Shown one piece after another: positions 1 through 23,082 of a stretch of DNA of 26,680 nucleotides. Position numbers and translations under genes: made by a program. The stretch covers positions 1-26,680 of IMG/VR virus record IMGVR_UViG_3300030012_001613; one strand, 5' to 3'. The notes beneath the pieces were generated by a model, which saw only the letters and a list, made by a program, of their open reading frames with translations, had not been told where the DNA came from and searched no databases. The DNA comes from a virus. Numbering within the stretch: position 1 is the first letter of the stretch; each line of letters begins with the position of its first letter.

Positions 1-370
1 CGATGATCTCGAGGCGCATCTGTGGGTTGGTCGCTCGGTCGATGCCGTGCTGGATCATGAGCCGCTCGATCAGGCCGACGATGACCTCGCTCGCCTCGTG
101 TCCGGCTCGGGCGTGCTGACTCACCTGACGAACATAGTTCAGCCGCGCCGTGTTCCGGGCGACCAGCTCATCGGCAAGCTGGGCGAGAACGATCGCCGCA
201 TCGGCGTCGAAGTCCTCGACCAGGTGAGCAAGCTGCGCCTCGATCACGCGGATCCGGGGATCGACCTCATCCACCGGATCGCCGTCCTCGTTGGTTGCTG
301 GCTTCAGCTTGGGATCCTCGAGGAGGTCGAGGAGTCGATACTGGTCTGGCGTGAGCCGATTGACGATCAT
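1..370 (-). CDS. Partial distal virion/tail-region protein, unknown function
   Basis: An open frame starts at ATG 370 and runs off the left edge of the window, giving 123 visible residues and no stop. The start overlaps the stop of the upstream tail gene as ATGA (367-370), the usual junction in this genome. The visible part begins MIVNRLTPDQYRLLDLL, then has a Pro/Asp-rich stretch and a long charged alpha-helical segment that looks coiled-coil-like (EAQLAHLVEDFDAD, LAQLADELVARN). There is no signal peptide, membrane segment or recognisable motif. Its place after the tail fibre-like gene suggests a virion or tail-associated protein, but this is inferred from position only. The end coordinate 1 is the window edge, not the gene end. 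Confidence 0.7.
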   Translation of the reverse strand, partial: MIVNRLTPDQYRLLDLLEDPKLKPATNEDGDPVDEVDPRIRVIEAQLAHLVEDFDADAAIVLAQLADELVARNTARLNYVRQVSQHARAGHEASEVIVGLIERLMIQHGIDRATNPQMRLEII

Positions 371-1797
371 GCGATGAGGCTGTCCGCGATGTTCTCGCTG
401 CCTGCGAGGTTGACGGGTGGCAGGATGCCGTTCTGGTACAGGTCGAAGACTCGGTCCATGAAGCGGAGCATACTGCCCTGGTCGCCGTTCGTCACGTCGA
501 CCGTGAAGCTGTCCTCGATGTTGAAGGCGGTCGGCCCGGGAATGATCAAGAACTTGACCCCGCCCGGAGCGGTGCTGATCATCTCGGCGAAGACCACCCC
601 GTCGATCAGGACGTTGGTGCCGTTCGTGAACGCGGTGGACTGCTCGATCGTGAAGTAGATGGGGTCGGCGAGGTCAGTGGCTGCCCGGAAGCTGCCGGTG
701 TGGACACCGTATGCGCTGTCGGACAGGGAGCCGTGGTTGATGGTGAAGCTGTTGTCGTAGCTCTTGCTGGCGTTGGCCAGTCCCACCTTCAGCACTCCCG
801 CCGACGAAGCGGTCCCAGACTTGCGTGCCAAGATGCCGACACCGTAGAGCGCGTCGGGCCTGACGCCTTGCGTGGCACCTGATCCGATGCTGCCGAACTC
901 CTGCTGCACGCATATCTGGGTGGAGCCGTCGCTCGCCAACTTGAGCGCGTTGCTACCGATAGCGACCGTGCTCGACTCCTTGAGAATCGTCGCGCCTGCA
1001 CTTCCGGTCCGGGCGATCCAGTTCAGGGGGAGGTTGGACTGGAACGACTCGAAGGACGAGTTGCGGAGCATGTTGCGCCCGGTCCTGCGGCCATCGCCTA
1101 AGACCGTCGAGGTCGCTGAGAAGTTTCCGACGTATCCGCTGCCGCCAGGCCAGCGGTGATCCATGGATGGGTACACCGCAGCCCCCCGGACCTCGAACAT
1201 CTCAGCACCCACCGGCAGCTTCTTCGTTCTCGCGTCTGCGATGCATCGGAAACGCAGGGTCTCGGTCCGGCATGTTCCGATGTTGCTGCCATGCGTCGCG
1301 GTCTTGGTGTTGTCAGCCTCTGCGCTCACGATCACGGTGCCGTTGCCCACGTTGCTCCCACCCGCTGAGGTGCTTCCGATCGTGATGACTGAACCGTCGA
1401 GGCTCTTGGAGTTGGCGATCATCTGATCCCGTAGCTCGAACAGGGCGTCCTTGAACGTCTTCCGGGGCAGGTTGCTGGGCGGCGTCTGCGCCTTGAGGTC
1501 CGCCTCCATCATCTCGATCAGGGTGCGACGTGCGACCGACTGAACCCTCATGAAGAAGTCCGAGCCGATCGAGTTCTTCAGGGCGTCGATGTCCTGGGTC
1601 AGCTCCTTGGTGAACTGGATGTCGGTGTTCTGGGTCGCTCCGAGCGCGTTGATGTACTCCTGGAGAGCCTCCTGCACCGATGTCCCAGATGCGTCGACGA
1701 TGTCGTCTTGGAACGTCTCCATGCGACTGAGTGCCCCGAAGAGCTTGCCAAGTCGTGCGAAGATGCCCTGCCCGCTTGTCGTGAAGTCTACAGTCAC
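367..1797 (-). CDS. Tail protein with carbohydrate-binding-like C-terminal half
   Basis: A 476-residue protein. The N-terminal ~130 residues are helical and charged (around METFQDDIVDASGTSVQEAL), followed by a Gly/Ser/Thr/Asn-rich beta region. From about residue 240 a segment starting NMLRNSSFESF, with LPLNWIARTG, GSNALKL and a later IYFTIEQS, follows the layout of family 4/9 carbohydrate-binding modules (jelly-roll: named, wounded first strand, Trp, then SGxxALKL-like strand). The last ~40 residues (RVFDLYQNGILPPVNLAGSENI) look like a conserved tail-end motif. It begins with ATG at 1797, overlapping the stop of the small Cys-rich gene (ATGA-type). It probably sits at the distal tail and may bind host surface glycans; the binding role is inference from layout. 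Confidence 0.7.
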   Translation of the reverse strand: MTVDFTTSGQGIFARLGKLFGALSRMETFQDDIVDASGTSVQEALQEYINALGATQNTDIQFTKELTQDIDALKNSIGSDFFMRVQSVARRTLIEMMEADLKAQTPPSNLPRKTFKDALFELRDQMIANSKSLDGSVITIGSTSAGGSNVGNGTVIVSAEADNTKTATHGSNIGTCRTETLRFRCIADARTKKLPVGAEMFEVRGAAVYPSMDHRWPGGSGYVGNFSATSTVLGDGRRTGRNMLRNSSFESFQSNLPLNWIARTGSAGATILKESSTVAIGSNALKLASDGSTQICVQQEFGSIGSGATQGVRPDALYGVGILARKSGTASSAGVLKVGLANASKSYDNSFTINHGSLSDSAYGVHTGSFRAATDLADPIYFTIEQSTAFTNGTNVLIDGVVFAEMISTAPGGVKFLIIPGPTAFNIEDSFTVDVTNGDQGSMLRFMDRVFDLYQNGILPPVNLAGSENIADSLIA

Positions 1798-2054
1798 CTC
1801 ATGCCGTCCTCTCGTTTCATGCGCCGCTTCCTACTCCATCGGTTCATCGCCTCCCTGCGGCGTTGACAAGATCCGCACGGCTTGAAGCCGAGGCTGCTGG
1901 TGACCTTCTTGATCTTGTCGCCAAGACCTCGATCGGGACCGGCGTACTCGGTGCAGGTCTCGCAGCACTGCTCGAGGTCGTCCTTGTCGCAGAGCTTCAG
2001 ACTGCACGTCTGGGTTCCGTTGGCGTTCTGGGCCGCGTAGATGCACTCGCTCAT
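1794..2054 (-). CDS. Small cysteine-rich protein with zinc-finger-like C-terminus
   Basis: I chose ATG 2054, which overlaps the upstream stop as ATGA (2051-2054); the frame stays open further upstream but that part is shadow of the cysteine-rich gene. The 86-residue product begins MSECIYAAQ and has eight cysteines, including a CCETC cluster and a CGSCQRRR motif followed by EAMNRWSRKRR. The order GLGD, then a Lys-rich helix, then GFKPCGSCQRRREAMN resembles a small phage protein family usually found among tail genes; I recall the pattern, not a specific name. The CxxC pairs could bind zinc and the basic C-terminus could bind nucleic acid or an acidic partner, but neither is shown. It is one of a run of Cys-rich genes. 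Confidence 0.7.
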   Translation of the reverse strand: MSECIYAAQNANGTQTCSLKLCDKDDLEQCCETCTEYAGPDRGLGDKIKKVTSSLGFKPCGSCQRRREAMNRWSRKRRMKREDGMR

Positions 2055-3508
2055 GATCTCACCCTGATGTCGACGCTCTTGTCGCCCGGTCCCTTGGCAT
2101 AGTAGTCTCCCGACGTGAAGAGGTCGAAGTACTCCTCGGCGGTGCATCCATAGCACCATGGAATGTCATCCCTGTCGATCAGTCCCGGGGCGTTGATCGT
2201 GATCGACTTCGTGTCGACGATGCGACCCCAGCCCACTCGCGGGTTGCCGCAGCTATCCCATCGAGCGATGCACTTCTCCTCCCAGCAGTCTCCGGCGTAG
2301 TCCGGGTCGTTGCCGCATTCAGGGTGACAGCTCGGAAGCTGCGAGGCTTGGGTGCAGTTGTTGAAGTTGCCGATGTTCGGACCATGGCACCAGTAGCTGC
2401 TGTCATGCTGCGGGCAGAAGCAGTTTAGGTAGGGCTTGCCAAAGTGGTCGCGGTACGATTCGCAGCACGCGCCAGCTCCTGCGTCGTATCCGTTGCCCAG
2501 TCCCCAAGCGCATCCGTCATACACGCCGGGGTTGTCCTGCTCGCAAAAGCAGTTGGCGTCCTGCGTGCAGTTCCTTGAGCATATGGGCTCGAAGCAGACG
2601 CTGCCCTCGATGAACCACGGGGAGCAGTTGCAGATGCATCGCTCGTCGTGCGCTTGGAGTGCGTCGCACGGATTGAACACCCCGCCACCTTCACGATCGA
2701 AGCACCAGTACTCCGACCCGGTTCTGCCACAACCGAGGGACCCGTTGCTGTTGCACTCGCACTGATTGAAGTCGCAGCAGGCAAGCGAGCCGACATCATG
2801 ATAGAGCCGCTTACCATGAACGCCCGGGGCATGGAAACCGATCACGCCCTGCCATGCTGTCTTTCCATCGCCGAGGTCGATGCAATCCAAGCTCGCCGTC
2901 CTGATCGAGTAGTCGAGGGGGGAGATGAACTTCTTGCTGTTCGGCGTTGCGATGAGGTCGCCCTCGGAGTGACAATCCCAGCAACCATCCGACGTAATGC
3001 CGCTCAGACATCCCGGGTTGAGCACGCTCTGCGTCAGTCTGCCGAAGGAGCCATACTGCGCGGACTTGCCAGAGTCGAAGACCGAGAACCTGCACGACTG
3101 CGTTGTCGATCTTGATGCTCCCGCGTATGGCGCGTCCGCCATCCACTCGTTCGTCGATGGGTCCATGCACGGCGTGGTTCGGCACTTCGGCCAGTACACC
3201 CCGCGCATCATCATATTCCCACCCTTGAGCCATGAATCTGAATACCATCCGCGTGCTGTGATCTCGTCGTGCCGCACGACTTCGACTGCACTACTCGGCA
3301 GGAAGAGCGCGTTGTGGCGCTCTGCCGTGGTCCGGCAGTTCAGCGTGGTGGCTCCGCCACCAGGCGGACAGATTCGCGTGCATTGCAATGAGTTCGAAAG
3401 AGAGATCCCGTCGTACTCGATCATGAGGCTGGTCTCGTCGCAGTTGCATCCGGACGGTGGTGACCCGTCCTTGCCGCAACAACAGGAAGCCCCAAGCACG
3501 CTAGGCAC
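2051..3508 (-). CDS. Cysteine-rich distal virion protein
   Basis: A 485-residue protein with about 44 cysteines (roughly 9%), spread from residue 9 (SCCCGKDG) to the end (WCYGC). Cysteines occur as CxC, CC and CxxC groups (CDFNQCECN, RCICNCSP, NCFCEQ, NCFCPQ), with repeated Asn/Gly/Asp/Tyr/Trp around them. There is no signal peptide, so it is not an exported protein by the usual route. The start is ATG 3508, overlapping the preceding gene by 8 bases. It lies among the distal tail genes, so it is probably a virion adhesin or tail appendage whose cysteines form disulfides or hold metal ions. I recognise no named family. Composition is unlike the head and tail-tube genes upstream. Confidence 0.75.
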   Translation of the reverse strand: MPSVLGASCCCGKDGSPPSGCNCDETSLMIEYDGISLSNSLQCTRICPPGGGATTLNCRTTAERHNALFLPSSAVEVVRHDEITARGWYSDSWLKGGNMMMRGVYWPKCRTTPCMDPSTNEWMADAPYAGASRSTTQSCRFSVFDSGKSAQYGSFGRLTQSVLNPGCLSGITSDGCWDCHSEGDLIATPNSKKFISPLDYSIRTASLDCIDLGDGKTAWQGVIGFHAPGVHGKRLYHDVGSLACCDFNQCECNSNGSLGCGRTGSEYWCFDREGGGVFNPCDALQAHDERCICNCSPWFIEGSVCFEPICSRNCTQDANCFCEQDNPGVYDGCAWGLGNGYDAGAGACCESYRDHFGKPYLNCFCPQHDSSYWCHGPNIGNFNNCTQASQLPSCHPECGNDPDYAGDCWEEKCIARWDSCGNPRVGWGRIVDTKSITINAPGLIDRDDIPWCYGCTAEEYFDLFTSGDYYAKGPGDKSVDIRVRS

Positions 3509-3866
3509 TACGCGGCTCCAGACCGTAGGCGTGGATGCTCACAGCAGTTCCAGAATGTAGCTGTCCCATCAATCGTTCCCCGGGCTGCATTATCAACTTC
3601 ACCCTCTGCACGCTCTCGTCCATCTTGTCCCTGAAGCTCACGATGCTGTGGACGATCACGTTGGATGATGCGACGGTCTCCTCGCCGACTGGAAGCAGGT
3701 GATGGATCCTGTACTGGTTTGACGTGCCGCCTTGACTAGCTGCCACCCACAATGCTGTGACCATTGTCGGACCCCCGAACGGTGCAGTGTAGAGCAGGGT
3801 CGCAACCGTCAGGTCGGTGCTTGCAGTGGTCACTTCTTTGGAGAAAAGCCTGCGCGGTACGCTCAT
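3501..3866 (-). CDS. Small virion structural protein (beta-rich)
   Basis: The start is ATG 3866, overlapping the upstream stop as ATGA (3863-3866); the longer open frame upstream is shadow. The 121-residue product begins MSVPRRLFSK and reads as alternating beta strands: ATLLYTAPFGGPTMVTALWVA, then RIHHLL, NVIVHSIV, VQRVKLIMQPGERLMGQ and a final VSIHAYGLE. This order (LYTAP, a short beta block, LxPGDxL-like turn, a last strand ending in Y-G-x-E) matches a small virion-associated family common next to tail genes of siphoviruses. Its exact role is unknown; a tail or capsid decoration component is the likely reading. The 8-base overlap with the Cys-rich gene downstream suggests the two are translated together. 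Confidence 0.7.
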   Translation of the reverse strand: MSVPRRLFSKEVTTASTDLTVATLLYTAPFGGPTMVTALWVAASQGGTSNQYRIHHLLPVGEETVASSNVIVHSIVSFRDKMDESVQRVKLIMQPGERLMGQLHSGTAVSIHAYGLEPRSA

Positions 3867-4849
3867 CGCATCATCTCCGCGAACATGCTCATGAAGCCGG
3901 GGTCGTGCTCTCGGACCGACATGCTGCCGGTGGTGCTGTCTGGCATTGTGCTCTCCTTGACAGTGAGGGACTCGTCCTCCTCGCAGCAGGTGACGCATCG
4001 CTCGTTCGTTGCGTTGAAATAGTAACCGCTCCCGGTGTTGACGACCACGACCCTAGTTCCTGCCGGGACTCGGGTGATCGGCATCTCGATCTCGCAGTCG
4101 GTTCCGTTGATCTGTCCACCCATGCCTCGAGGCTCGCATCCGTTCAACGCCTCGAACGGCTCACCGACCTCATCGTCGTCGATCACTCTCCTCACCATGT
4201 ACGGACTGCCATCAGCAGGGGTGCATGGTGGGTCGTTGCCTTCTCCTTGAATCGCTGCGAGGAAGGAGTCCGGGTTCTTCGGTGACTGGAAGACGAGGAT
4301 CGACTTGCCCTGATTGTTCGCCGAGGGGAAGAGCAGGACCACCATGCCCTTGAAGTTGTTGGCGTCGGTGGTGTCGGTTTCCTCACCCTGCTCGTCGGTC
4401 GGTCGCTCCAGGCTGAAGCCGTTGGTCGGGAATGCTGGGTTGTTGCGCTCCGCGCTCCAACTACGCCGACCAGCCGAGACCCAAGGAGATCCCTCGGTGC
4501 TCGTCTCATCGAGGAAGACCTCGGTCCACTTGTATCCGATGCGGGTCGGCGTCTCGTCTCCACCCTCGCCACCACCGCCTTCGTCTCCACGTCGCTCACG
4601 GTATCGACTCTGCGAGCCTTCAGGCGGTTCGCCCTCTTCCTCCTCGGCTCTGGTTCCGGGGAGGATACGATCGCCCAGCTTGGCGATGATCGGGAAGTTG
4701 CCAGCACCACCCCGTGGCTGCGTGCTCGTGCCGAAGCCAAAGTTCGTGATGAACTCGGTGTTCTGCTGCACCTGTCCGATCAGGTCGTTGAGGACCTCGG
4801 TGGTGAGCTTGCCATATTGGCCCTGGGTGAACTCCGGGAACTCAGGCAT
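3863..4849 (-). CDS. Virion-associated protein, unknown function
   Basis: A 328-residue protein starting MPEFPEFTQGQYGKL at ATG 4849, with a strong GAGGAG site seven bases upstream. The N-terminal ~45 residues are helical (LTTEVLNDLIGQVQQNTEF). A low-complexity Glu/Gly/Arg-rich linker follows at about residues 68-100 (EEEEGEPPEG, GDEGGGGEGGDE), then a beta-rich part with strands such as GMVVLLFPSA, KSILVFQSP and TRVVVVNTGSGYYF. Near the end, NERCVTCCEEDE adds a cysteine cluster, echoing the two Cys-rich genes downstream. It sits in the distal tail block and is probably a virion protein; the family is not one I recognise. Confidence 0.65.
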   Translation of the reverse strand: MPEFPEFTQGQYGKLTTEVLNDLIGQVQQNTEFITNFGFGTSTQPRGGAGNFPIIAKLGDRILPGTRAEEEEGEPPEGSQSRYRERRGDEGGGGEGGDETPTRIGYKWTEVFLDETSTEGSPWVSAGRRSWSAERNNPAFPTNGFSLERPTDEQGEETDTTDANNFKGMVVLLFPSANNQGKSILVFQSPKNPDSFLAAIQGEGNDPPCTPADGSPYMVRRVIDDDEVGEPFEALNGCEPRGMGGQINGTDCEIEMPITRVPAGTRVVVVNTGSGYYFNATNERCVTCCEEDESLTVKESTMPDSTTGSMSVREHDPGFMSMFAEMMR

Positions 4850-13666: not shown

Positions 13667-14557
13667 TCAACGGTTGGAAATAATCGGACGAAGAGTGCAG
13701 CGACAGTTCGGATGCAGGGGTGGAGTCCGCACGTCGGCGTAGTCGATGGCCAACGTCCCGCCCTTGGATCCCTTGAGCGTAGATCCTACAGTGAAGAACG
13801 GTGCCTTGATGTCCTGCGATCCGGTCCCCTTCATGGCCTCGCAGAACTCGCACGGATTCGGTGAGACCTGCCAGCTCATTCGGGTCACGCCCATATCCTC
13901 CCACGCGACGACCTGCCCCTGATTCAACGCACGGGAAGCCTCGGTCCTTGCGATCCGTTCGGCCCTCCATCGGACGGATCGGTCCTGATCGCCTTGTCTC
14001 TTGGCCCAGTCCTGCACGCGCTGGGTGATCTCCCTCGGGGTCGCACCCTGCTCGAGCGTATCGCCCAGGAGCTGCTTGATGGTGCCCCGAGCGGTGATGA
14101 CTCCCTGATTGCTCAGTCTCAGCATCTGCTGTTTCATCACTTGCTGGACTTGCTCCGCTGCCACCAGCTCGCCGACAACCATTGAGGGGAGGACCGTCTG
14201 GCCCATCGTGTAGCCTGCGATGGCTTGCCGGGCAAGGTACTGCTCGATGTAGACCGGGATGGCCTTGGCACGAGCTGCGATCTCGTTGTTGAGCTGGCCC
14301 CGGAGGTGCTCGTTGGTCAGCACCTTGGCCAGATCATCAGCATAGGATCCGGTGCCGCCTAGCTTGCTGACGGTATCTCGAAGAATCCCGCTGATGTATC
14401 GACGAAGCTCCAACTGGAAGCGGTTGTAGGCGGTCGCTGAGGTGGTGACAGCATCAGGGACAGCCGGGACCATCTTGGTGTGGACATATGGCGCAGTGAC
14501 ATCCAGAGCACTCTGGAGGATCAGCCGCTTGGATGCACCGCAGCAGTCGCAAGACAT
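13667..14557 (-). CDS. MuF-like (SPP1 gp7 family) minor head protein
   Basis: A 296-residue protein starting MSCDCCGASKRLILQSALD at ATG 14557, overlapping the portal stop by one base. It has the late MuF landmarks: IARTEASRALNQG at about 202-214, NPCEFCEAM with Cys236 and Cys239, and HPNCRCTLRP at about 282-291. These belong to the phage Mu gpF / SPP1 gp7 head morphogenesis family, a few copies of which sit inside the capsid near the portal. The N-terminal Cys3/Cys5/Cys6 cluster and the internal Cys pairs could bind metal. No toxin domain is attached; the protein ends directly after the MuF motif. It lies between portal and protease genes, its usual place. Confidence 0.88.
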   Translation of the reverse strand: MSCDCCGASKRLILQSALDVTAPYVHTKMVPAVPDAVTTSATAYNRFQLELRRYISGILRDTVSKLGGTGSYADDLAKVLTNEHLRGQLNNEIAARAKAIPVYIEQYLARQAIAGYTMGQTVLPSMVVGELVAAEQVQQVMKQQMLRLSNQGVITARGTIKQLLGDTLEQGATPREITQRVQDWAKRQGDQDRSVRWRAERIARTEASRALNQGQVVAWEDMGVTRMSWQVSPNPCEFCEAMKGTGSQDIKAPFFTVGSTLKGSKGGTLAIDYADVRTPPLHPNCRCTLRPIISNR

Positions 14558-17500
14558 CAGCCACCGCCTCCCGGAGTGGTGCCGGTTCCGCCGACCAGGC
14601 CACCACCAGAGTCAGCCGATGGCGCGGCTTGAGGCTTGCCCGTCTGGTCGTCGTCCTTGCCTCGTCCGATCAGTTCGTTGATCTTCGAGCGTAGCAGTGT
14701 CGGCAAGCCATGCTGGACCCCGTGGAACCTGCTGAGAGCCCCGGCCAGAAGCAGGGACGACTCCATGGTGGCCATCTCGTTGTCCTCGTCCATGACTGCC
14801 TCGGCCAGCGTCTCGACGTACTTCTCGGCCTCCGTCTCGGTCAGCTCCTGAGCCTCGAAGCCGCTGATGGACTGGAGCAGGTTGTTGAAGGCATCGATGT
14901 CCTCGGTGTCGACGGCCCCGTCGCCATTGATGTCCGCAGCGTCGTCGCCGTTGAGCCAAGCCTCGAGGAAGCGGTTGAGGTCGTCCGGAGTGACCTCACC
15001 GTCGCCATCGAAGTCGATCTGGCGGATGATCTGTGCCCGAACCGGGAGGCCGACGTTGATGTCCTCGAGGTCGCGGTCGATCTCGAGCTGCTTCTTCGCG
15101 TCGCTCTTCTTGGGGTGGCCCTTCGGCAGGAGGTCGTTGTCGGTGGTGTACTTCGCGTCCTTGGGCCGACCGGTTCGCACCAGATACAGGAACGAGTTGA
15201 CCCGGGCCATGCTCCACTGCTGCCTCGACATGCCCGGACGGTGCGAGGTCGAGAACGCACCCGCACCCCTGCGGTATACGGCCTTGAGCATCCCGAGGTC
15301 GACCTTCTTGCCCTTCTTGTCCCCGTGCTTCTCGTTGTGCTCCTCGACCTTCGCCTTCAGAGCCTTCTCCTGCGCTTCGGATATCTCGATCCCACCACGA
15401 GTGCCCGATGCGCTCCCGGGCTTGTTCTCGTCTGATCCAGTGACCCGCTCGCTGGGCTTGGCGGGGGTGGCACTGATGCGGTCCCCGGCGGCCTTCGTTC
15501 CGGCAGCCTGCTCGAGCTGGCGGTCCTTCATCTTGGCCCATGCGGTCCCTGCACCCTCGGGGTCGCTCGGATCACCACCCCACAGCAGCCAGGCGATGAC
15601 CCCAGCGGAGGGGTATCCCTCGTTCCCGGGCTTGGCCGCTGGGGCCTCGAGGTCGACCCGGTGACGAGCGAAGAACGACTGCATCCGCCGCACGGTCTCC
15701 GGGCTGAGGTTCTCGCGGTTCTTGATGTCCCTGGCTCGAGCGACTCCCACAGCCGTGCCGCCTCGTCCATGTTCTTCACGGAGTCGGAGGCCACGCTCGG
15801 CCATCTCGGACATGGTCTTCGTGGGGGTGAGGTCCACGTCCTCGATGGCCTTCGCGTGCTCGAGCCCGGTGAGTTCGGTGTAGTCCTCCATTTCACCACA
15901 GGGCATGTAGACGGTCGTCCCGTCCTCGAGTTCGTGCTCGTGAAACCCGGAGCAGCCCAGCTCCTCCGCACGCTCGAGGGCCTCCTCCTTCGTGGGGTAT
16001 ATGTCGATATCCGTGGCCCCGACCTCCTTCGTTCTGGCTCGCTCCATCGCGATCCGACTCTGGGAGAGCACGGCCTCGACTGCGTCGGAACTCGGCACGC
16101 CGAGCTTCTTGCAGAGAGTGATCGCGGCATGGGCGGACAGGTTGCCGTCAGCCACGTCGGCCAGCACCGACTTCATCGAGCGCACGACCTCGATCTCGTC
16201 GGGCTCCTCCTCCTGCGTCATGATCGGCGTGTCGATGTCTGCGAAGCCAAGGGGCGGACCGGGGACCGCCGGGGCAGAGCCAAGGGGCTGACCGTTGAAG
16301 AGCAGCTCGTCCGCCAGCGGGTTATCGTTCTCCTCGAGCCCTTGAGCCATCCGCGCTTCGTTGAGGGTCATCCAGCCACCGGCGACCGCTGCCTGCCGCT
16401 CTTGGAGCTGGAAGGCGTTGTCCGCTGGGACCGGGTTGTCGTAGGCGAGGCAGGCATCCTCCTCGATGCCGAACATGGGCAGCAGCACCTGGTTCAGGAC
16501 ATCCTCGTCCATGCGGAGCAGCGGCAGGATGGTGCTCTCGCGCCACTGAGCGAAGCCAGCGCGGGCCGAGGCTAGGTTCGGGTCGTTGGCCTTCATCATC
16601 GAGACCGGCACCCCGAAGACCGCAGCGATCTCCTCGACGATCTCCTCGCGACCGCTGAGGTCCTTGGGCGGGAAGTTCAGCGGTGTGAACTGCACGTCCC
16701 CGCTGACCGTCAGGAACTGGCCCGCCTTGCGAGTTCCCCGGAGCCGCTCGCTGACGTGCTGCTCGAAGACATCGAGGTCGGCGCGTCGGTGCGGACCGTT
16801 GACGACGACAGCATAGTCGGGCCGGGCGTGGTTCTCGAAGATCGAGAGGTCCATCTCATGCACCGCCTGGTTCGCAGCGACGGAGCCATAGGCTGCCTCG
16901 ACCTTGCCCAGTCCGTAGAAGAGGTTTTCGGGGTTCGGCCTCTTGAAGTGGATGACCTCGTCCGGGTCGAACTTCATGGCCTGCGTGTCGTCTGCACCAT
17001 AGATGTATCCGTCGATGAAGTTCTCCTTGGATGGGACGACCTGCATCCACTGGCTGGGCATGGGCCAGAGTTGAGTCGGAACGCCGAGCACGGGATCGAT
17101 GATCGGGTGGAGGTAGGCGTTGCCCGTCAGCTCCTGATAAAGCGTGCGGAGCAGGGTCAGGTCGAAGCCGTTGTACACGTGGTTGGCTTTACGGAGCACG
17201 TCGATCACTGGGTGGGTCTCAGTGACCTCCACCATGTCGTCCCCCATCTCCATGACCTTGTTGATCACGCTCGAGGAGGGCCGGACATCACCCTGACCGT
17301 CGCCCATCATGTACCGCTTCCGGGCGGTGCTCACCTTGCGGGTCCGCCACAGTGACTTCTGGCTCGAGTCGTTCCGGACGTAGAGGCGCAGCGGTGTCGC
17401 CGCGACTGCGGACCCGTTGATCCACGCTGCGGCGTAGACCCAGGATCTGAACGACCGAACCGCCACGCGATAGTTGAATGGCGGCTGGGCTGACCCCTCG

Positions 17501-17580
17501 CGTCCCATGGTGTCCACCATGCGAATGCTCGAGGCGTTGTACTTGTCCGTGTCGAAGAGTCGCTTGATCCATTGAAGCAT
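14557..17580 (-). CDS. HK97-family portal protein with large C-terminal multi-domain extension
   Basis: A 1007-residue protein, about twice the usual portal length. Residues 1 to about 440 are an HK97-type portal (FRSWVYAAAWINGSAVAATPL, YGLGKVEAAYGSVAANQAVH, EIVEEIAAVFGVPVSMMKAN), the ring through which DNA enters the capsid. The rest holds, in order: YPTKEEALERAEELGCSGFHEHE with YMPCGEM (about 530-560); ARDIKNRENLSPETV and GYPSAGVIAWLLWGG (about 612-665); RRGAGAFSTSHRPGMSRQQW (about 768-790); two dockerin/EF-hand-like loops, DFDGDGEVTPDDL (minus strand of 14977-15015) and DINGDGAVDTEDI (14895-14933); and a Gly-rich end. The middle motifs recur in phage head-region proteins. ATG 17580 overlaps the terminase stop by one base. 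No frameshift or internal stop is seen. Confidence 0.85.
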   Translation of the reverse strand: MLQWIKRLFDTDKYNASSIRMVDTMGREGSAQPPFNYRVAVRSFRSWVYAAAWINGSAVAATPLRLYVRNDSSQKSLWRTRKVSTARKRYMMGDGQGDVRPSSSVINKVMEMGDDMVEVTETHPVIDVLRKANHVYNGFDLTLLRTLYQELTGNAYLHPIIDPVLGVPTQLWPMPSQWMQVVPSKENFIDGYIYGADDTQAMKFDPDEVIHFKRPNPENLFYGLGKVEAAYGSVAANQAVHEMDLSIFENHARPDYAVVVNGPHRRADLDVFEQHVSERLRGTRKAGQFLTVSGDVQFTPLNFPPKDLSGREEIVEEIAAVFGVPVSMMKANDPNLASARAGFAQWRESTILPLLRMDEDVLNQVLLPMFGIEEDACLAYDNPVPADNAFQLQERQAAVAGGWMTLNEARMAQGLEENDNPLADELLFNGQPLGSAPAVPGPPLGFADIDTPIMTQEEEPDEIEVVRSMKSVLADVADGNLSAHAAITLCKKLGVPSSDAVEAVLSQSRIAMERARTKEVGATDIDIYPTKEEALERAEELGCSGFHEHELEDGTTVYMPCGEMEDYTELTGLEHAKAIEDVDLTPTKTMSEMAERGLRLREEHGRGGTAVGVARARDIKNRENLSPETVRRMQSFFARHRVDLEAPAAKPGNEGYPSAGVIAWLLWGGDPSDPEGAGTAWAKMKDRQLEQAAGTKAAGDRISATPAKPSERVTGSDENKPGSASGTRGGIEISEAQEKALKAKVEEHNEKHGDKKGKKVDLGMLKAVYRRGAGAFSTSHRPGMSRQQWSMARVNSFLYLVRTGRPKDAKYTTDNDLLPKGHPKKSDAKKQLEIDRDLEDINVGLPVRAQIIRQIDFDGDGEVTPDDLNRFLEAWLNGDDAADINGDGAVDTEDIDAFNNLLQSISGFEAQELTETEAEKYVETLAEAVMDEDNEMATMESSLLLAGALSRFHGVQHGLPTLLRSKINELIGRGKDDDQTGKPQAAPSADSGGGLVGGTGTTPGGGG

Positions 17581-19492: not shown

Positions 19493-20710
19493 TCACTCCT
19501 TGATTCGCTCAGCCTTCTCGCCGGTCAGGTTCTCCCACCGCGTGACGATCACGTCGCAGAAGCTGGGCTCCATCTCCATCCCGAAGCAGCGGCGACCAGA
19601 CTGATCTGCTGCGATCATCGTGGTCCCGGATCCGAGGAACAGATCCAAGACCAAGTCCCCAGTCTCCGAGCTGTTTTCGATGAACTTGGTGCAGAGCGCG
19701 ACCGGCTTGGCTGCGTTGTGGAATCTCTGACCCTTCTCCTGCTCTGACTCGAACCCGCCCTGTCCCGTCCTGTTCATCCTGATGATGTTGGGCTCGTGGA
19801 CTGATCTCTGCCCTGTCTTCTTCTTCTTCATGTGAGAATCGTGGACCGGGAGTCTCTGCATGAATCCGACAAGCTCGTGGTTGTTGCGATAGTTCGACCC
19901 CAGACCGAAGTCGCCCTTGTCCCAGACCAGCATATTGGAGATGGTGAGGCTCGCCCTCTTGGATGCCTCGATCCAACCTGACCAGGATCGCCAGTCGCAG
20001 AAGACGTAGAGGTGGGCGAACTCTCGGACATTGTTGTGGGCCGTCCGGAGCACTGTCTCGAAGAACGGCCTGACCATCTTGTCGTCGGCGACACTTGAGG
20101 ACACTCCGGTCGAGCTTCCGAAGATCGCATACGGCGGATCGGTGACGACCAAGTCGGCCTTCTGGTTGTCCATCAGTCGATCGAAGTGCTGGGGGTTGGT
20201 CGAGTCTCCGCATAGCAGTCGATGCCGTCCCAGCTTCCAGAGGTCCCCGGGCTTCGTCACTGGCTCGACGTTCTCCGGGATCTCGTCCTCGATGACCTCG
20301 TTGCCTCCGGCCATGGCCTCCACCATCTTGTCGATCTCCTTGGAGTCGAACCCGGTGATGGCTGCGTCGATGCTTTCGTCGTTCTCGAGGGCGACCAGTG
20401 ACTGAGCGAGCTGATCGTCATCCCATGCGGCCAGCTCTGCGGTGCGGTTGTCGGCTATGGCGAAGGCGGTCTGGGTCGGTCCGTCGAGCTGGGTCACGAC
20501 CGCCTGGATCGTTTCCCATCCGAGTTGCCTCGCTGCTTCGAGCGTCCCGTTCCCGGCGACGACTTTGCCTTGTTGGTCGATGACGATCGGCTTCTGCTGG
20601 CCGAAGGCTTCGAGGCTTTCCCGGATGGCTTGGAGGTTCCGCTCGTCGTGCTTGCGGGAGTTCTCCGGGTCTTGGTGGAGGTCTTGGACCTTCCTGTCTT
20701 CGACTTGCAT
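19493..20710 (-). CDS. ParB-domain / DNA methyltransferase fusion
   Basis: A 405-residue protein starting MQVEDRKVQDLHQDPENSRK, ATG 20710, with AAGGAG five bases upstream. Residues ~1-100 are a ParB-like nuclease/sulfiredoxin-fold domain (DPENSRKH at 14-21, GKVVAGNGTLEAARQLGW at 48-65). Residues ~155-405 are a beta-class adenine or N4-cytosine methyltransferase: DLVVTDPPYAIFG with the catalytic DPPY at 191-194, and SAM-binding LDLFLGSGTT (355-364). The order DPPY before FxGxG is the beta class. It methylates specific DNA sites to protect phage DNA or alter regulation; no cognate restriction enzyme is in the window. ParB-methyltransferase fusions are common in phages. It has no DNA-cleavage role seen here. 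Confidence 0.93.
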   Translation of the reverse strand: MQVEDRKVQDLHQDPENSRKHDERNLQAIRESLEAFGQQKPIVIDQQGKVVAGNGTLEAARQLGWETIQAVVTQLDGPTQTAFAIADNRTAELAAWDDDQLAQSLVALENDESIDAAITGFDSKEIDKMVEAMAGGNEVIEDEIPENVEPVTKPGDLWKLGRHRLLCGDSTNPQHFDRLMDNQKADLVVTDPPYAIFGSSTGVSSSVADDKMVRPFFETVLRTAHNNVREFAHLYVFCDWRSWSGWIEASKRASLTISNMLVWDKGDFGLGSNYRNNHELVGFMQRLPVHDSHMKKKKTGQRSVHEPNIIRMNRTGQGGFESEQEKGQRFHNAAKPVALCTKFIENSSETGDLVLDLFLGSGTTMIAADQSGRRCFGMEMEPSFCDVIVTRWENLTGEKAERIKE

Positions 20711-20964: not shown

Positions 20965-21140
20965 TCATCCTCGTCTTCGTCGTCGTCCTCTTCATCGTCC
21001 TCTCCCTTCGAGAAGAGCAGATCGATCAGGACGTCCATCAGAACGCCTGACGCGGTGAAGTGGTCCAAGTCGAACTCGGTGCTCCACCAGAGTATACGCT
21101 TCTCGAGGTCTTCCTTGAACTTGTCGGCGGCTGTTCTCAT
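20961..21140 (-). CDS. Small acidic protein, unknown function
   Basis: I choose ATG 21140, overlapping the phosphoesterase stop as ATGA (21137-21140), with AGGA nine bases upstream; a longer frame start at 21173 is less likely. The 59-residue product begins MRTAADKFKEDLEKRILWW, continues STEFDLDHFTASGVLMDVLIDLLF and ends in a 17-residue acidic tail (EDDEEDDDEDEDE). The helical part followed by a polyacidic tail suggests interaction with a basic partner, but nothing identifies it. It lies between the phosphoesterase and the ParB-methyltransferase region. Confidence 0.6.
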   Translation of the reverse strand: MRTAADKFKEDLEKRILWWSTEFDLDHFTASGVLMDVLIDLLFSKGEDDEEDDDEDEDE

Positions 21141-21916
21141 GGCTGCATCCTGATCAGTTCCGCATCCCAGCACCTACCATGCAGTCGGCTGGGCCTGTCC
21201 CAGATGGCGTCGACGACGATGATCGCGCTACCCCACTGACTTGTATCCTGCCGCTTTGCCCATTCGGGGTCCAACGGTCCGCAGGTGCCGACGTTCGCGT
21301 ACCAGTAGGGCAGGGGGATCTTGGCGGTCCTCTTCGCCTGAGTCGGAGGGACCGGGCGGTGGGTGTGGCCTCGGACGGCCAGCGAGTGCGGGATCCAGCC
21401 CTCGTGGGCGATCATCTGGATGCCCTCGAGTTCGTCGGAGTTCGTGCCAGCATCGAACCCGTGCCAGAAGTGGACCTGACCTATCCGCATGATGGCTCGC
21501 TTCGACTTGGCATAGGGCAGCCATGACCATCGACGGAACTCCTCCCCGAACTCCGGGTGGTTGTTCCAGTGAACCATGCCCCGGAGGGCCTTGGGGATCC
21601 TTCTGGGATCAGCCGCCTGGAGGTTGTCGTCGTGGTTCCCGGTGTTGATCCACCGGATGCAGTCCGGCGGCAGGACTCCCCGGATTTCGGCAAGGAGTCC
21701 TGCCGCCGCCTCATACTCATCGACGAGCGCGTGGTCATGTTCGTCAGCGTGGACCGATGCGGCCCCAGCCTCGAACACGTCGCCCAGGTGACCGAAATGG
21801 GTCAGCCCGTCGATGTCGCTCAACGTCCTCAACAACCACTCTCGAGTGTCGGAGGGCGTGAACGGTGCGTGGGTGCAGCTTATCGCTGCAATCTTGGCTC
21901 TTCGTCGTTCGCCCAT
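21137..21916 (-). CDS. Calcineurin-like metallophosphoesterase
   Basis: A 259-residue protein starting MGERRRAKIAAISCTHAPFT at ATG 21916 with a perfect AAGGAGG site seven bases upstream. The metal-binding order of the family is visible: a first motif S-C-T-H (residues 13-16), HLGDVF (Asp46), NTGNHDDNL and GHTHRP near the C-terminus. In typical members the first motif is D-x-H; here Asp is replaced by Cys14, which may change the metal or activity. The family hydrolyses phosphomonoesters, phosphodiesters or nucleotides; a phage role in nucleotide or DNA-end processing is possible. It begins within the end of the upstream small gene (37-base overlap). Confidence 0.88.
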   Translation of the reverse strand: MGERRRAKIAAISCTHAPFTPSDTREWLLRTLSDIDGLTHFGHLGDVFEAGAASVHADEHDHALVDEYEAAAGLLAEIRGVLPPDCIRWINTGNHDDNLQAADPRRIPKALRGMVHWNNHPEFGEEFRRWSWLPYAKSKRAIMRIGQVHFWHGFDAGTNSDELEGIQMIAHEGWIPHSLAVRGHTHRPVPPTQAKRTAKIPLPYWYANVGTCGPLDPEWAKRQDTSQWGSAIIVVDAIWDRPSRLHGRCWDAELIRMQP

Positions 21917-22099: not shown

Positions 22100-22240
22100 T
22101 CAGCCCTCGAACTTCCCGCCGGTGACCAACTTCAAGAACGGCACCTTGAAGATCACTCCGGCGAGGAAGGAGGCGCAGCACAGGAGAGCGACCCCGAAGA
22201 AGCTGCTGAAGAACCCGGACGCGAATGCAAGCGTGAACAT
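22100..22240 (-). CDS. Very small hydrophobic membrane protein
   Basis: A 46-residue frame starting MFTLAFASGFFSSFFGVALL at ATG 22240, with AAAGG eight bases upstream. Nearly all residues 2-36 are hydrophobic or small (through LAGVIFKVPFLKLV), forming one or two membrane segments, and a short charged end KFEG. It follows the lipoprotein-like gene and lies within a run of membrane genes. Small hydrophobic proteins of this size next to other membrane genes can be holins or regulators of them, but no specific family is seen. Its frame is open upstream as shadow of the preceding gene, and the good ribosome-binding site decides the start. Confidence 0.6.
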   Translation of the reverse strand: MFTLAFASGFFSSFFGVALLCCASFLAGVIFKVPFLKLVTGGKFEG

Positions 22241-22617
22241 GGTGTCCGCCTTTCGTTGAGGATCTGCCGCACGATGCGGTAGGTCCATGCCCCGCTGATC
22301 AGTCCTGTGAAGACGACCAGCGGATAGAAGATGAGGTGGCTGTAGCTTGCCACCGCGTAGTTCAGGAGGACCAACACGATCCCCCCGATGACCGGGAACC
22401 AGCCCCGGGCACCCCTCGTTATTGCAAGCATGATGATCCCCCCGATCAAGCTGAAACCGCCGACGGCGGACAACACCGTCAAGGTCTCCACCTGGTTCGT
22501 GACTGGCGACATCATCATGCTCGATGCTTTTCCCGGCAGCACGTCCACCTTCGGCAACGAGCAAGCCGTCACCGAGGCCACGGTCAGCATGAAGGCGGAG
22601 AGGCTGGCGTACTTCAT
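22153..22617 (-). CDS. Lipoprotein-like polytopic membrane protein
   Basis: A 154-residue frame from ATG 22617, overlapping the upstream stop as ATGA (22614-22617). The N-terminus, MKYASLSAFMLTVASVTACSLPK, has a signal-peptide-like hydrophobic stretch and a lipobox-like V-T-A-C (Cys19). Later residues form about three hydrophobic segments: TLTVLSAVGGFSLIGGIIML, GWFPVIGGIVLVLLNYAV and LIFYPLVVFTGLISGAW. The last ~29 residues lie over the next gene in another frame (88 bases) and look like overlap shadow. A lipoprotein plus membrane segments is unusual; it could be a lysis-related or membrane-anchored protein of the virion pathway. Function not assigned. Confidence 0.6.
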   Translation of the reverse strand: MKYASLSAFMLTVASVTACSLPKVDVLPGKASSMMMSPVTNQVETLTVLSAVGGFSLIGGIIMLAITRGARGWFPVIGGIVLVLLNYAVASYSHLIFYPLVVFTGLISGAWTYRIVRQILNERRTPCSRLHSRPGSSAASSGSLSCAAPPSSPE

Positions 22618-22823
22618 TCGATCGTCTTCCTGATGGTGAAGGCCTTGTCGAAGTGCTGGGCGAGCTTCTTGCTGTTCCCGGTGATGCGGTGCTCGTGGCC
22701 CTCTAGCCGTTGCTCGATCGAGTGCAGCTTGCTGTTCACTCTCCAGAGAAAGCCGAAGATCCCAAGGACCGCCGGGGCGGCCAGGCCCATCATCATCTCG
22801 GTCAACTGTTCCACGTCACCCAC
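22614..22823 (-). CDS. Small membrane protein with coiled-coil region
   Basis: A 69-residue frame from GTG 22823, overlapping the upstream gene by 8 bases; a start at one of the later in-frame GTG/ATG codons is possible because the ribosome-binding site is weak. The N-terminal third is hydrophobic (MMMGLAAPAVLGIFGFLW), one membrane segment, followed by a charged helical part with coiled-coil character (KLHSIEQRLEGHEHRITGN). This topology (N-terminal anchor, then helical part) is like inner-membrane spanins or holin accessory proteins, but similarity to a specific family is not visible. Confidence 0.6.
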   Translation of the reverse strand: MGDVEQLTEMMMGLAAPAVLGIFGFLWRVNSKLHSIEQRLEGHEHRITGNSKKLAQHFDKAFTIRKTIE

Positions 22824-23082
22824 CAGACTCTAAGCGGTTGATCCTGATCTCGAGGCTGTTCATCCGAGTCACCTGCTGGCTGTTCATGGATTCGGAGAGC
22901 ACCTGCGACCTGACCAGCTCGGTGACGATCGAGCGCAGCTCTGCGATGTGCAGGGCGTTCGTCTCGATCACCTGATCCCGGCGTCCGATGGCAAGGAAGA
23001 CAGCAGAAGCTGCCCCGACCAGGATCACCGTCTCGAGCATTGACCACAGTCGACTGCCGTCAGCCTGGCCCTGTCTCTGCAC
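22816..23082 (-). CDS. Membrane-anchored coiled-coil protein
   Basis: An 88-residue frame; I choose GTG 23082, with GGAG about ten bases upstream, although ATG 23040 (MLETVILV) is possible. It overlaps the nuclease gene by 23 bases. After a basic start it has one hydrophobic segment (LETVILVGAASAVFLAIG, about 16-33) and then a long helical part (IAELRSIVTELVRSQVLSES and RMNSLEIRINRLESGG). N-terminal anchor plus periplasmic or cytoplasmic coiled coil is a layout shared by spanins and other small phage membrane proteins. It begins the four-gene membrane run. Confidence 0.6.
   Translation of the reverse strand: MQRQGQADGSRLWSMLETVILVGAASAVFLAIGRRDQVIETNALHIAELRSIVTELVRSQVLSESMNSQQVTRMNSLEIRINRLESGG

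What the first reader, a model, noticed from the sequence alone, without database searches (positions are those of the whole stretch)
2051..3508. A 485-residue virion-region protein with about 44 cysteines
Roughly one residue in eleven is cysteine, arranged in CC, CxC and CxxC groups across the entire length, without a signal peptide. Proteins folded in the bacterial cytoplasm rarely carry so many cysteines unless they bind metal or fold after release. Located among tail-tip genes, it may be an adhesin that forms disulfides outside the cell, or a metal-loaded spike.
Basis: seen in the sequence. Interest (0 to 1): 0.72.

Follow-up and report, generated by a model that had tools for sequence, protein, structure and literature searches.

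The report
Hypervariable cysteine-rich phage tail adhesin
A virus that probably infects planctomycete bacteria carries a fast-evolving, cysteine-packed protein in its tail-gene block; many unrelated relatives keep a "CCC" tag at its start, a matching cysteine at the end of a nearby tail protein and the same small partner gene, which suggests a host-recognition part fastened to the tail by sulfur chemistry.

Summary
In detail: 485 codons, 44 Cys (9.1%), coordinates exact, but on the minus strand. CC/CxC/CxxC spacing is what random placement of 44 Cys gives. No annotated library matched it.

A 40%-identical homolog keeps 32 of the 44 Cys. The same slot, directly upstream of a small six-to-eight-Cys protein ("C85"), is conserved in dozens of uncultured phages. 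The slot protein is hypervariable (30 sequence clusters), yet about three quarters of loci carry CCC at residues 5-10; the rest mostly have another N-terminal Cys cluster. Cys are far better conserved than other residues, and CxxC is not enriched, which argues against a zinc-ribbon or Fe-S protein. A tail protein nearby upstream is Cys-poor but usually ends in Cys (-1 to -4) or carries CVxCC near its end.

Best reading: a disulfide-rich tail adhesin whose N-terminal CCC is fastened to the C-terminal cysteine of a tail-fibre-like protein, with C85 as co-translated partner. Conservation, synteny and the terminal-Cys pattern are shown; virion location, adhesion, disulfides and the joint are inferred. 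The host is probably Planctomycetota (TerL relatives in 24/392 genomes versus 0/390 Pseudomonadota).

The parts
2051..3508 (-). Cysteine-rich protein (CRP), 485 aa, 44 Cys, GTG start, hypervariable
   Evidence: homolog in L033 at 40% identity; no Pfam, PHROGs, NCBIfam or phage-record match
3476..3484 (-). Codons of the N-terminal CCC motif (residues 9-11)
   Evidence: CCC at residue 5-10 in all 30 CCC-type CRP clusters (these were selected on CCC), and in about 54 of about 74 C85-anchored loci, which were not selected on CCC
1794..2054 (-). C85: 86-aa partner with invariant C4, C17, C31, C34, C63 and motif RGLGD...C(x)xC..RR...N; its start overlaps the CRP stop (ATGA)
   Evidence: phrog_32048 (unknown function) matched by 9 of 20 members
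2051..2054 (-). ATGA: 4-base overlap of CRP stop and C85 start (translational coupling likely)
   Evidence: similar 1-4-base overlaps in several other loci
3863..4849 (-). gp4849: tail-fibre-like protein, Cys-poor, with conserved C-terminal cysteines
3983..3997 (-). Codons of CVTCC (residues 285-289) of gp4849, the C-terminal Cys motif of the window-type phages
   Evidence: C..CC or C..C.C near the C-terminus in all 12 window-type homologs
3501..3866 (-). gp3866: small conserved protein between gp4849 and CRP, 121 aa, no Cys
367..1797 (-). gp1797: conserved 476-aa protein directly downstream of C85
4853..7191 (-). Preceding tail genes gp5233, gp6085 and a short tape-measure-like protein (369 aa)
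   Evidence: synteny in L033 and L042

Best explanation
CRP is the host-facing, hypervariable adhesin of a siphovirus-like phage of Planctomycetota. Shown: it is a real, conserved, cysteine-rich protein in the tail module; its cysteines are constrained while the rest diverges fast; an N-terminal Cys cluster (mostly CCC), the adjacent C85 gene, and a C-terminal Cys on a nearby upstream tail protein recur together across very divergent phages. Inferred: the chain is made and attached in the reduced state in the cell; the N-terminal CCC docks onto the C-terminal cysteine(s) of the upstream tail-fibre-like protein, forming an interchain thiol joint (most likely disulfides, possibly metal-bridged), while the body cysteines pair into disulfides after lysis and give a compact protein that tolerates sequence change in its exposed surface. 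C85, translated from an overlapping start, is a dedicated partner: a thiol or zinc-type chaperone or a third piece of the joint.
For: Same slot in close and distant relatives. N-terminal CCC upstream of C85 in loci fetched by C85, not by CCC; only 56 of 874 non-redundant ORFs in these loci have CCC near a start, nearly all in this slot. CCC is kept even where the body has almost no other Cys (L057: 5 Cys in 338 aa). Cys conservation 67-98% against 21-79% for other residues. CxxC not enriched. Odd total Cys in 22 of 30 clusters (p=0.016), as expected for 3 + pairs. C-terminal Cys in upstream tail proteins: 34 of 43 homologs have Cys in the last 4 residues or a C..CC motif, against about 8% and 0.5% of 834 background ORFs; the only Cys of 124-449-aa proteins in L060, L086, L087, L104 is terminal; also in unrelated proteins (L084-L087, L150, L199, L200). 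CRP and gp4849 diverge fastest in the block. Precedent: phages Milano and 7-7-1 have disulfide-linked virions, including tail fibres linked to baseplate (PMC10811340, PMC12796354).
Against: No structure: AlphaFold gave pLDDT 26 for CRP. No virion proteomics. Parity is only a trend, and the window protein itself (44 Cys, even) and within-family differences (22 even, 53 odd) do not follow it. CCC is absent in about a quarter of C85 loci, though most of those have another N-terminal Cys cluster. No C-terminal Cys was found upstream in L134, L161, L201 or in the long freshwater cluster within the sequence at hand, except L136 and perhaps L123/L129. Some upstream proteins were picked by looking for terminal Cys among a few ORFs. 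In L034, L036 and L064 small membrane-protein genes lie between the tail protein and CRP.
Confidence: 0.5

Rival explanations
1. Metal-clustered joint: the N-terminal CCC, the C-terminal Cys of the upstream tail protein and perhaps the six conserved Cys of C85 form a zinc or iron-sulfur site that holds adhesin and tail together; body Cys are disulfides.
For: CCC plus one Cys gives four thiolates; C85 has the Cys number of a zinc-binding protein and a partly confident helical model with CxxC at a helix start. Phage lambda gpL and the roseophage R4C hub carry a tail Fe-S cluster on four Cys (PMC10276861).
Against: No sequence or fold match of C85 to a metal-binding family. Adjacent CCC cannot easily bind one metal (established chemistry). 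lambda/R4C sites lie in one hub protein.
Confidence: 0.2
2. CRP as a whole is a metal-loaded spike or metal-storage protein.
For: 44 Cys and 11 His in a protein made without a signal peptide.
Against: CxxC is slightly depleted over 30 families (33 vs 43 expected); ordinary aromatic content; Cys content of the slot protein varies from about 1.5 to 10% while the slot is kept.
Confidence: 0.07
3. CRP is not in the virion but a late, lysis- or exclusion-related protein that oxidises at the cell surface.
For: In L034, L036 and L064 small membrane-protein genes of the kind seen in lysis cassettes lie just upstream; no proteomics exists.
Against: In the window and its close relatives CRP lies between tail genes and far from such genes; no signal peptide; terminal-Cys pairing with a tail protein.
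Confidence: 0.13
4. Ordinary variable tail protein; the high Cys content and the terminal Cys are lineage habits without a shared joint.
For: Tail proteins diverge fast in many phages; all the loci are metagenomic and partly related.
Against: Cys are the most conserved residues in nearly every family; N-terminal CCC persists where body Cys are lost; C-terminal Cys enrichment of upstream proteins in several unrelated families.
Confidence: 0.1

Closest known systems
Disulfide-networked virions of Agrobacterium phages Milano and 7-7-1 (PMC10811340, PMC12796354)
   Same: Phage virion parts linked by intra- and interchain disulfides, including tail fibre to baseplate; a reducing agent was needed to allow tail contraction in Milano.
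   Different: Those phages have about 1.4-2.6% Cys spread over capsid, sheath and baseplate; here about 9% Cys is confined to CRP and C85, CRP is hypervariable, and there is a CCC tag plus a partner gene. No match to CRP was found in the annotated phage collection.
Tail hub proteins with an Fe-S cluster (lambda gpL family, RcGTA/R4C hub; PMC10276861)
   Same: Cysteines used in a distal tail protein.
   Different: Four Cys in one conserved hub protein with one cluster; here 44 Cys, no CxxC pattern, no family match.
phrog_32048 (unknown function)
   Same: C85 matches it over about 42 aa (E 1e-6; 9 of 20 C85 members).
   Different: The match covers only the RGLGD...CxxC...LN half; the N-terminal four-Cys half is not covered. 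Only C85, not CRP.
Phage receptor-binding proteins / tail adhesins in general
   Same: Distal in the tail module, fastest-evolving, modular attachment by a short conserved N-terminus.
   Different: No sequence relation to any profiled RBP family; the conserved N-terminal motif is three cysteines.
Cysteine-rich YTV-domain cell-wall proteins of Planctomycetales (PMC8567305)
   Same: Cysteine-rich proteins at the surface of the probable host phylum.
   Different: Cellular proteins; similarity to CRP was not tested, mentioned only as host context.

Membership tests
Phage tail adhesin / receptor-binding protein | Encoded in the distal tail module after the tape measure | tested here: met
   Synteny with tail genes in L033 and L042
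Phage tail adhesin / receptor-binding protein | Diverges faster than neighbouring structural genes | tested here: met
   41% vs 46-90% for neighbours in G002; only a quarter alignable in G003 against 34-56% identity for neighbours
Phage tail adhesin / receptor-binding protein | Sequence or fold related to a known RBP | tested here: not met
   No Pfam, PHROGs, NCBIfam or phage tblastn match; no usable fold model
Phage tail adhesin / receptor-binding protein | Present in virions and binds the host | not testable with these tools
   No virion proteomics or binding data available
Disulfide-stabilised virion protein (Milano type) | Cysteines conserved and paired | tested here: inconclusive
   Conserved strongly; pairing suggested only by parity
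Disulfide-stabilised virion protein (Milano type) | Cys enrichment across virion proteins | tested here: not met
   Other window structural proteins have 0-2.4% Cys
Zinc-ribbon / Fe-S type metalloprotein | CxxC pairs enriched | tested here: not met
   33 observed vs 43 expected over 30 families; 2 vs 3.8 in the window protein
Metallothionein | About 20-30% Cys and no or few aromatics, short | tested here: not met
   485 aa, 9.1% Cys, 10% aromatics
lambda gpL / RcGTA hub Fe-S protein | Profile match to the hub family | tested here: not met
   No Pfam or PHROGs match
Secreted disulfide-rich protein | Sec or Tat signal peptide | tested here: not met
   By inspection of the N-terminus MPSVLGASCCCG and of the other CRPs; no predictor was run
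phrog_32048 (for C85) | Profile match | tested here: met
   E 1e-6 over residues 41-82

The most novel reading that the evidence does not exclude
A previously undescribed, widespread way of mounting interchangeable adhesins on phage tails: any hypervariable, disulfide-rich adhesin body that carries an N-terminal cysteine cluster (usually CCC) is stapled to the C-terminal cysteine of the tail-fibre protein, with C85, a co-translated small CxxC protein, acting as a dedicated thiol chaperone or redox partner. The phage thereby controls its own extracytoplasmic-style disulfide folding from the cytoplasm.
Probability: 0.33. Interest if true: 0.86.

Novelty: new variant of a known kind. Interest (0 to 1): 0.7.

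Why it matters
My searches of the open-access library found no paper on phages named as infecting Planctomycetota, and no match to this protein in the annotated phage collection. If the reading is right, a large, unannotated set of host-recognition proteins becomes findable by three features that survive when sequence similarity does not: N-terminal Cys cluster, C-terminal Cys on a nearby upstream protein, and C85. It would also pose a direct biochemical question: how a protein with dozens of disulfides is assembled onto a virion in a reducing cytoplasm.

Tried and rejected
AlphaFold on CRP with its one close homolog: pLDDT 26, useless, so no fold search was made with it. C85 model (pLDDT 73) had no significant PDB or viral fold match. 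Direct searches with CRP in viral contigs found nothing at first; synteny via terminase, tail gene, gp1797 and C85 solved this. PDB sequence search gave one 18-residue hit to a designed protein (7on8), rejected as chance. Cys-rich ORFs on the antisense strand of L008 and L032 were rejected as artefacts. An even-number (fully paired) Cys rule failed for the whole set; the 3 + even rule is only a trend. A Rosetta-stone fusion of tail protein and CRP was sought in the giant-gene phages (L199, L200) and not found: there too the two are separate genes, with terminal Cys on the first. A prophage of the window's terminase type in a Planctomycetota genome (G248) has a different, lambda-like tail module and no CRP in the 20 kb read. 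C85 search in 392 Planctomycetota genomes gave only 7 hits, mostly short peptides in another context.

Full report
CHECK. The interval 2051-3508 holds an ORF on the minus strand: 485 aa, GTG start, 44 Cys. The number of cysteines is extreme for this genome: most other structural genes have 0-2.4% Cys. The CC, CxC and CxxC groups, however, are what 44 randomly placed Cys would give. No library recognised the protein. The window is an uncultured virus record.

HOMOLOGS. CRP-based searches first found nothing. Going through the terminase and a tail gene gave IMG/VR contig 3300030331_004689 with a 40%-identical protein of 38 Cys in the same place; 32 of the window's 44 Cys are aligned to Cys. In a more distant relative (contig 3300025138_000175, terminase 75% identical) the slot holds a 348-aa protein that is hardly alignable, with 18 Cys, but again starting MSTLLAACCC. 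Gene by gene, CRP is the least conserved member of its block (41% in the close relative against 46-90% for neighbours; only a quarter alignable in the distant one), with gp4849 next.

THE SLOT. Downstream of CRP, overlapping its stop by ATGA, lies C85 (86 aa), with five invariant Cys and the motif RGLGD...C(x)xC..RR...N. Searching with C85 and with gp1797 brought loci that were not chosen for CCC. In about 54 of about 74 of these with a readable upstream gene (my count), the protein directly upstream of C85 carries CCC at residue 5-10. These fall into 30 clusters without mutual blastp similarity over half their length, 202-655 aa, with 1.5-10.3% Cys. In L056 and L057 only two or three Cys remain outside CCC, so CCC is kept for its own sake. 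Most other C85 loci still have a Cys-rich neighbour with another N-terminal Cys cluster: CDCDCC (L148, L152), CYCQTCCKC (L088), PCLCP (Phycisphaerae and other genomes L083-L087), CGC...CCFG in giant 2221-2297-aa proteins with 91-94 Cys (L199, L200).

CYSTEINE STATISTICS. Within families Cys is conserved at 67-98% against 21-79% for other residues. Spacing in the bodies is random; CxxC is not enriched (33 observed, 43 expected), unlike zinc-ribbon or Fe-S proteins. The total is odd in 22 of 30 clusters (two-sided p=0.016), which fits three N-terminal Cys plus paired body Cys, but the window protein is an exception and pairs of homologs do not differ by even numbers, so this is only suggestive. 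dN/dS in one close-knit family is 0.08-0.17: a real, constrained gene.

THE OTHER END. Upstream lies a tail protein (gp4849 in the window) with an N-terminal P.F..G..G.L.....N...R motif. It is Cys-poor, yet homologs carry a cysteine at the C-terminus: CVxCC about 40 residues from the end in the 12 window-type phages, or Cys at -1 to -4 (..IDGTCP..YDVTCI..RLSVEC) in others. Of 43 homologs 34 have Cys in the last 4 residues or the C..CC motif; background ORFs show 66 and 4 of 834. The same holds for proteins without blastp similarity to gp4849: genomes L084-L087 (..TTESCS..DVTETC), L150 (..QEACA), L199/L200 (..LVECAT), L060 (449 aa, its single Cys at -2). In four of these proteins the terminal Cys is the only one. 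Homologs are not independent and some cases were found by looking for terminal Cys among a few upstream ORFs, so the figures are descriptive. Counter-cases: L089, L134, L161, L201, and freshwater loci where no such gene was seen in the sequence held.

HOST. C85 relatives in the genome collection are Planctomycetota in 7 of 9 cases. Terminase relatives occur in 24 of 392 Planctomycetota genomes (best 53% identity) and 0 of 390 Pseudomonadota. The host is probably a planctomycete; no direct link was found.

MECHANISM. I favour a two-piece tail adhesin. gp4849-like proteins form the tail-attached part; CRP is the exposed, fast-changing, disulfide-rich part; the CCC tag and the terminal Cys meet in a thiol joint; C85 assists. 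Shown: gene, synteny, constraint on Cys, both terminal Cys patterns, C85 linkage, rates. Inferred: virion location, adhesion, disulfide state, the joint, the role of C85. Milano and 7-7-1 show that disulfide-linked virion parts exist; lambda-type hubs show that tail cysteines can hold Fe-S clusters, so a metal joint remains a rival. The structure model of CRP failed, and C85 has no fold relative.

NOVELTY. Tail adhesins and disulfide-linked virions are known kinds; a hypervariable cysteine-rich adhesin family with a conserved N-terminal Cys tag, a matching terminal Cys on a nearby tail protein and a coupled partner was not found in the literature available here nor in the family libraries.

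Noticed in passing
L173-L178 (Planctomycetota genomes): The C85 motif GLGD..K(R)..GI.PC.GC.RR...LN also occurs at the end of short proteins with a 'PGF.A' leader-like stretch, in L173 next to subtilisin-type (S8) and PatG-domain proteins; looks like a peptide-maturation cluster.
   Followed up: partly
L199, L200: Giant 2221-2297-aa cysteine-rich proteins (91-94 Cys) in unrelated uncultured phages, again between a protein ending in Cys and C85.
   Followed up: partly
L083-L087 (Phycisphaerae and other Planctomycetota genomes): Prophage-like tail modules with a 160-aa, 11-Cys protein starting with a SGHLL...GHLV...PCLCP repeat in the CRP slot.
   Followed up: partly
14557-17580 minus: Portal protein with a roughly 500-residue C-terminal extension containing DUF3721, DUF5824 and dockerin/EF-hand-like calcium-binding repeats.
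   Followed up: no
19493-20710 minus: ParB N-terminal domain fused to an N6/N4 DNA methylase, upstream of the terminase.
   Followed up: no
21137-21916 minus and L201:116-898: Metallophosphoesterase-like gene; similar phosphoesterase-like genes occur near C85 in other loci (L088, L131, L201).
   Followed up: no
22153-23082 minus: Two or three small genes with a hydrophobic segment, one with a lipoprotein-like start (MKYASLSAFMLTVASVTAC), possibly the lysis cassette.
   Followed up: no
L081, L082 (Nonlabens phages P12024S/L): A C85-like GLGD..CxxC..LN motif in a gene close to the terminase, without a cysteine-rich neighbour.
   Followed up: partly
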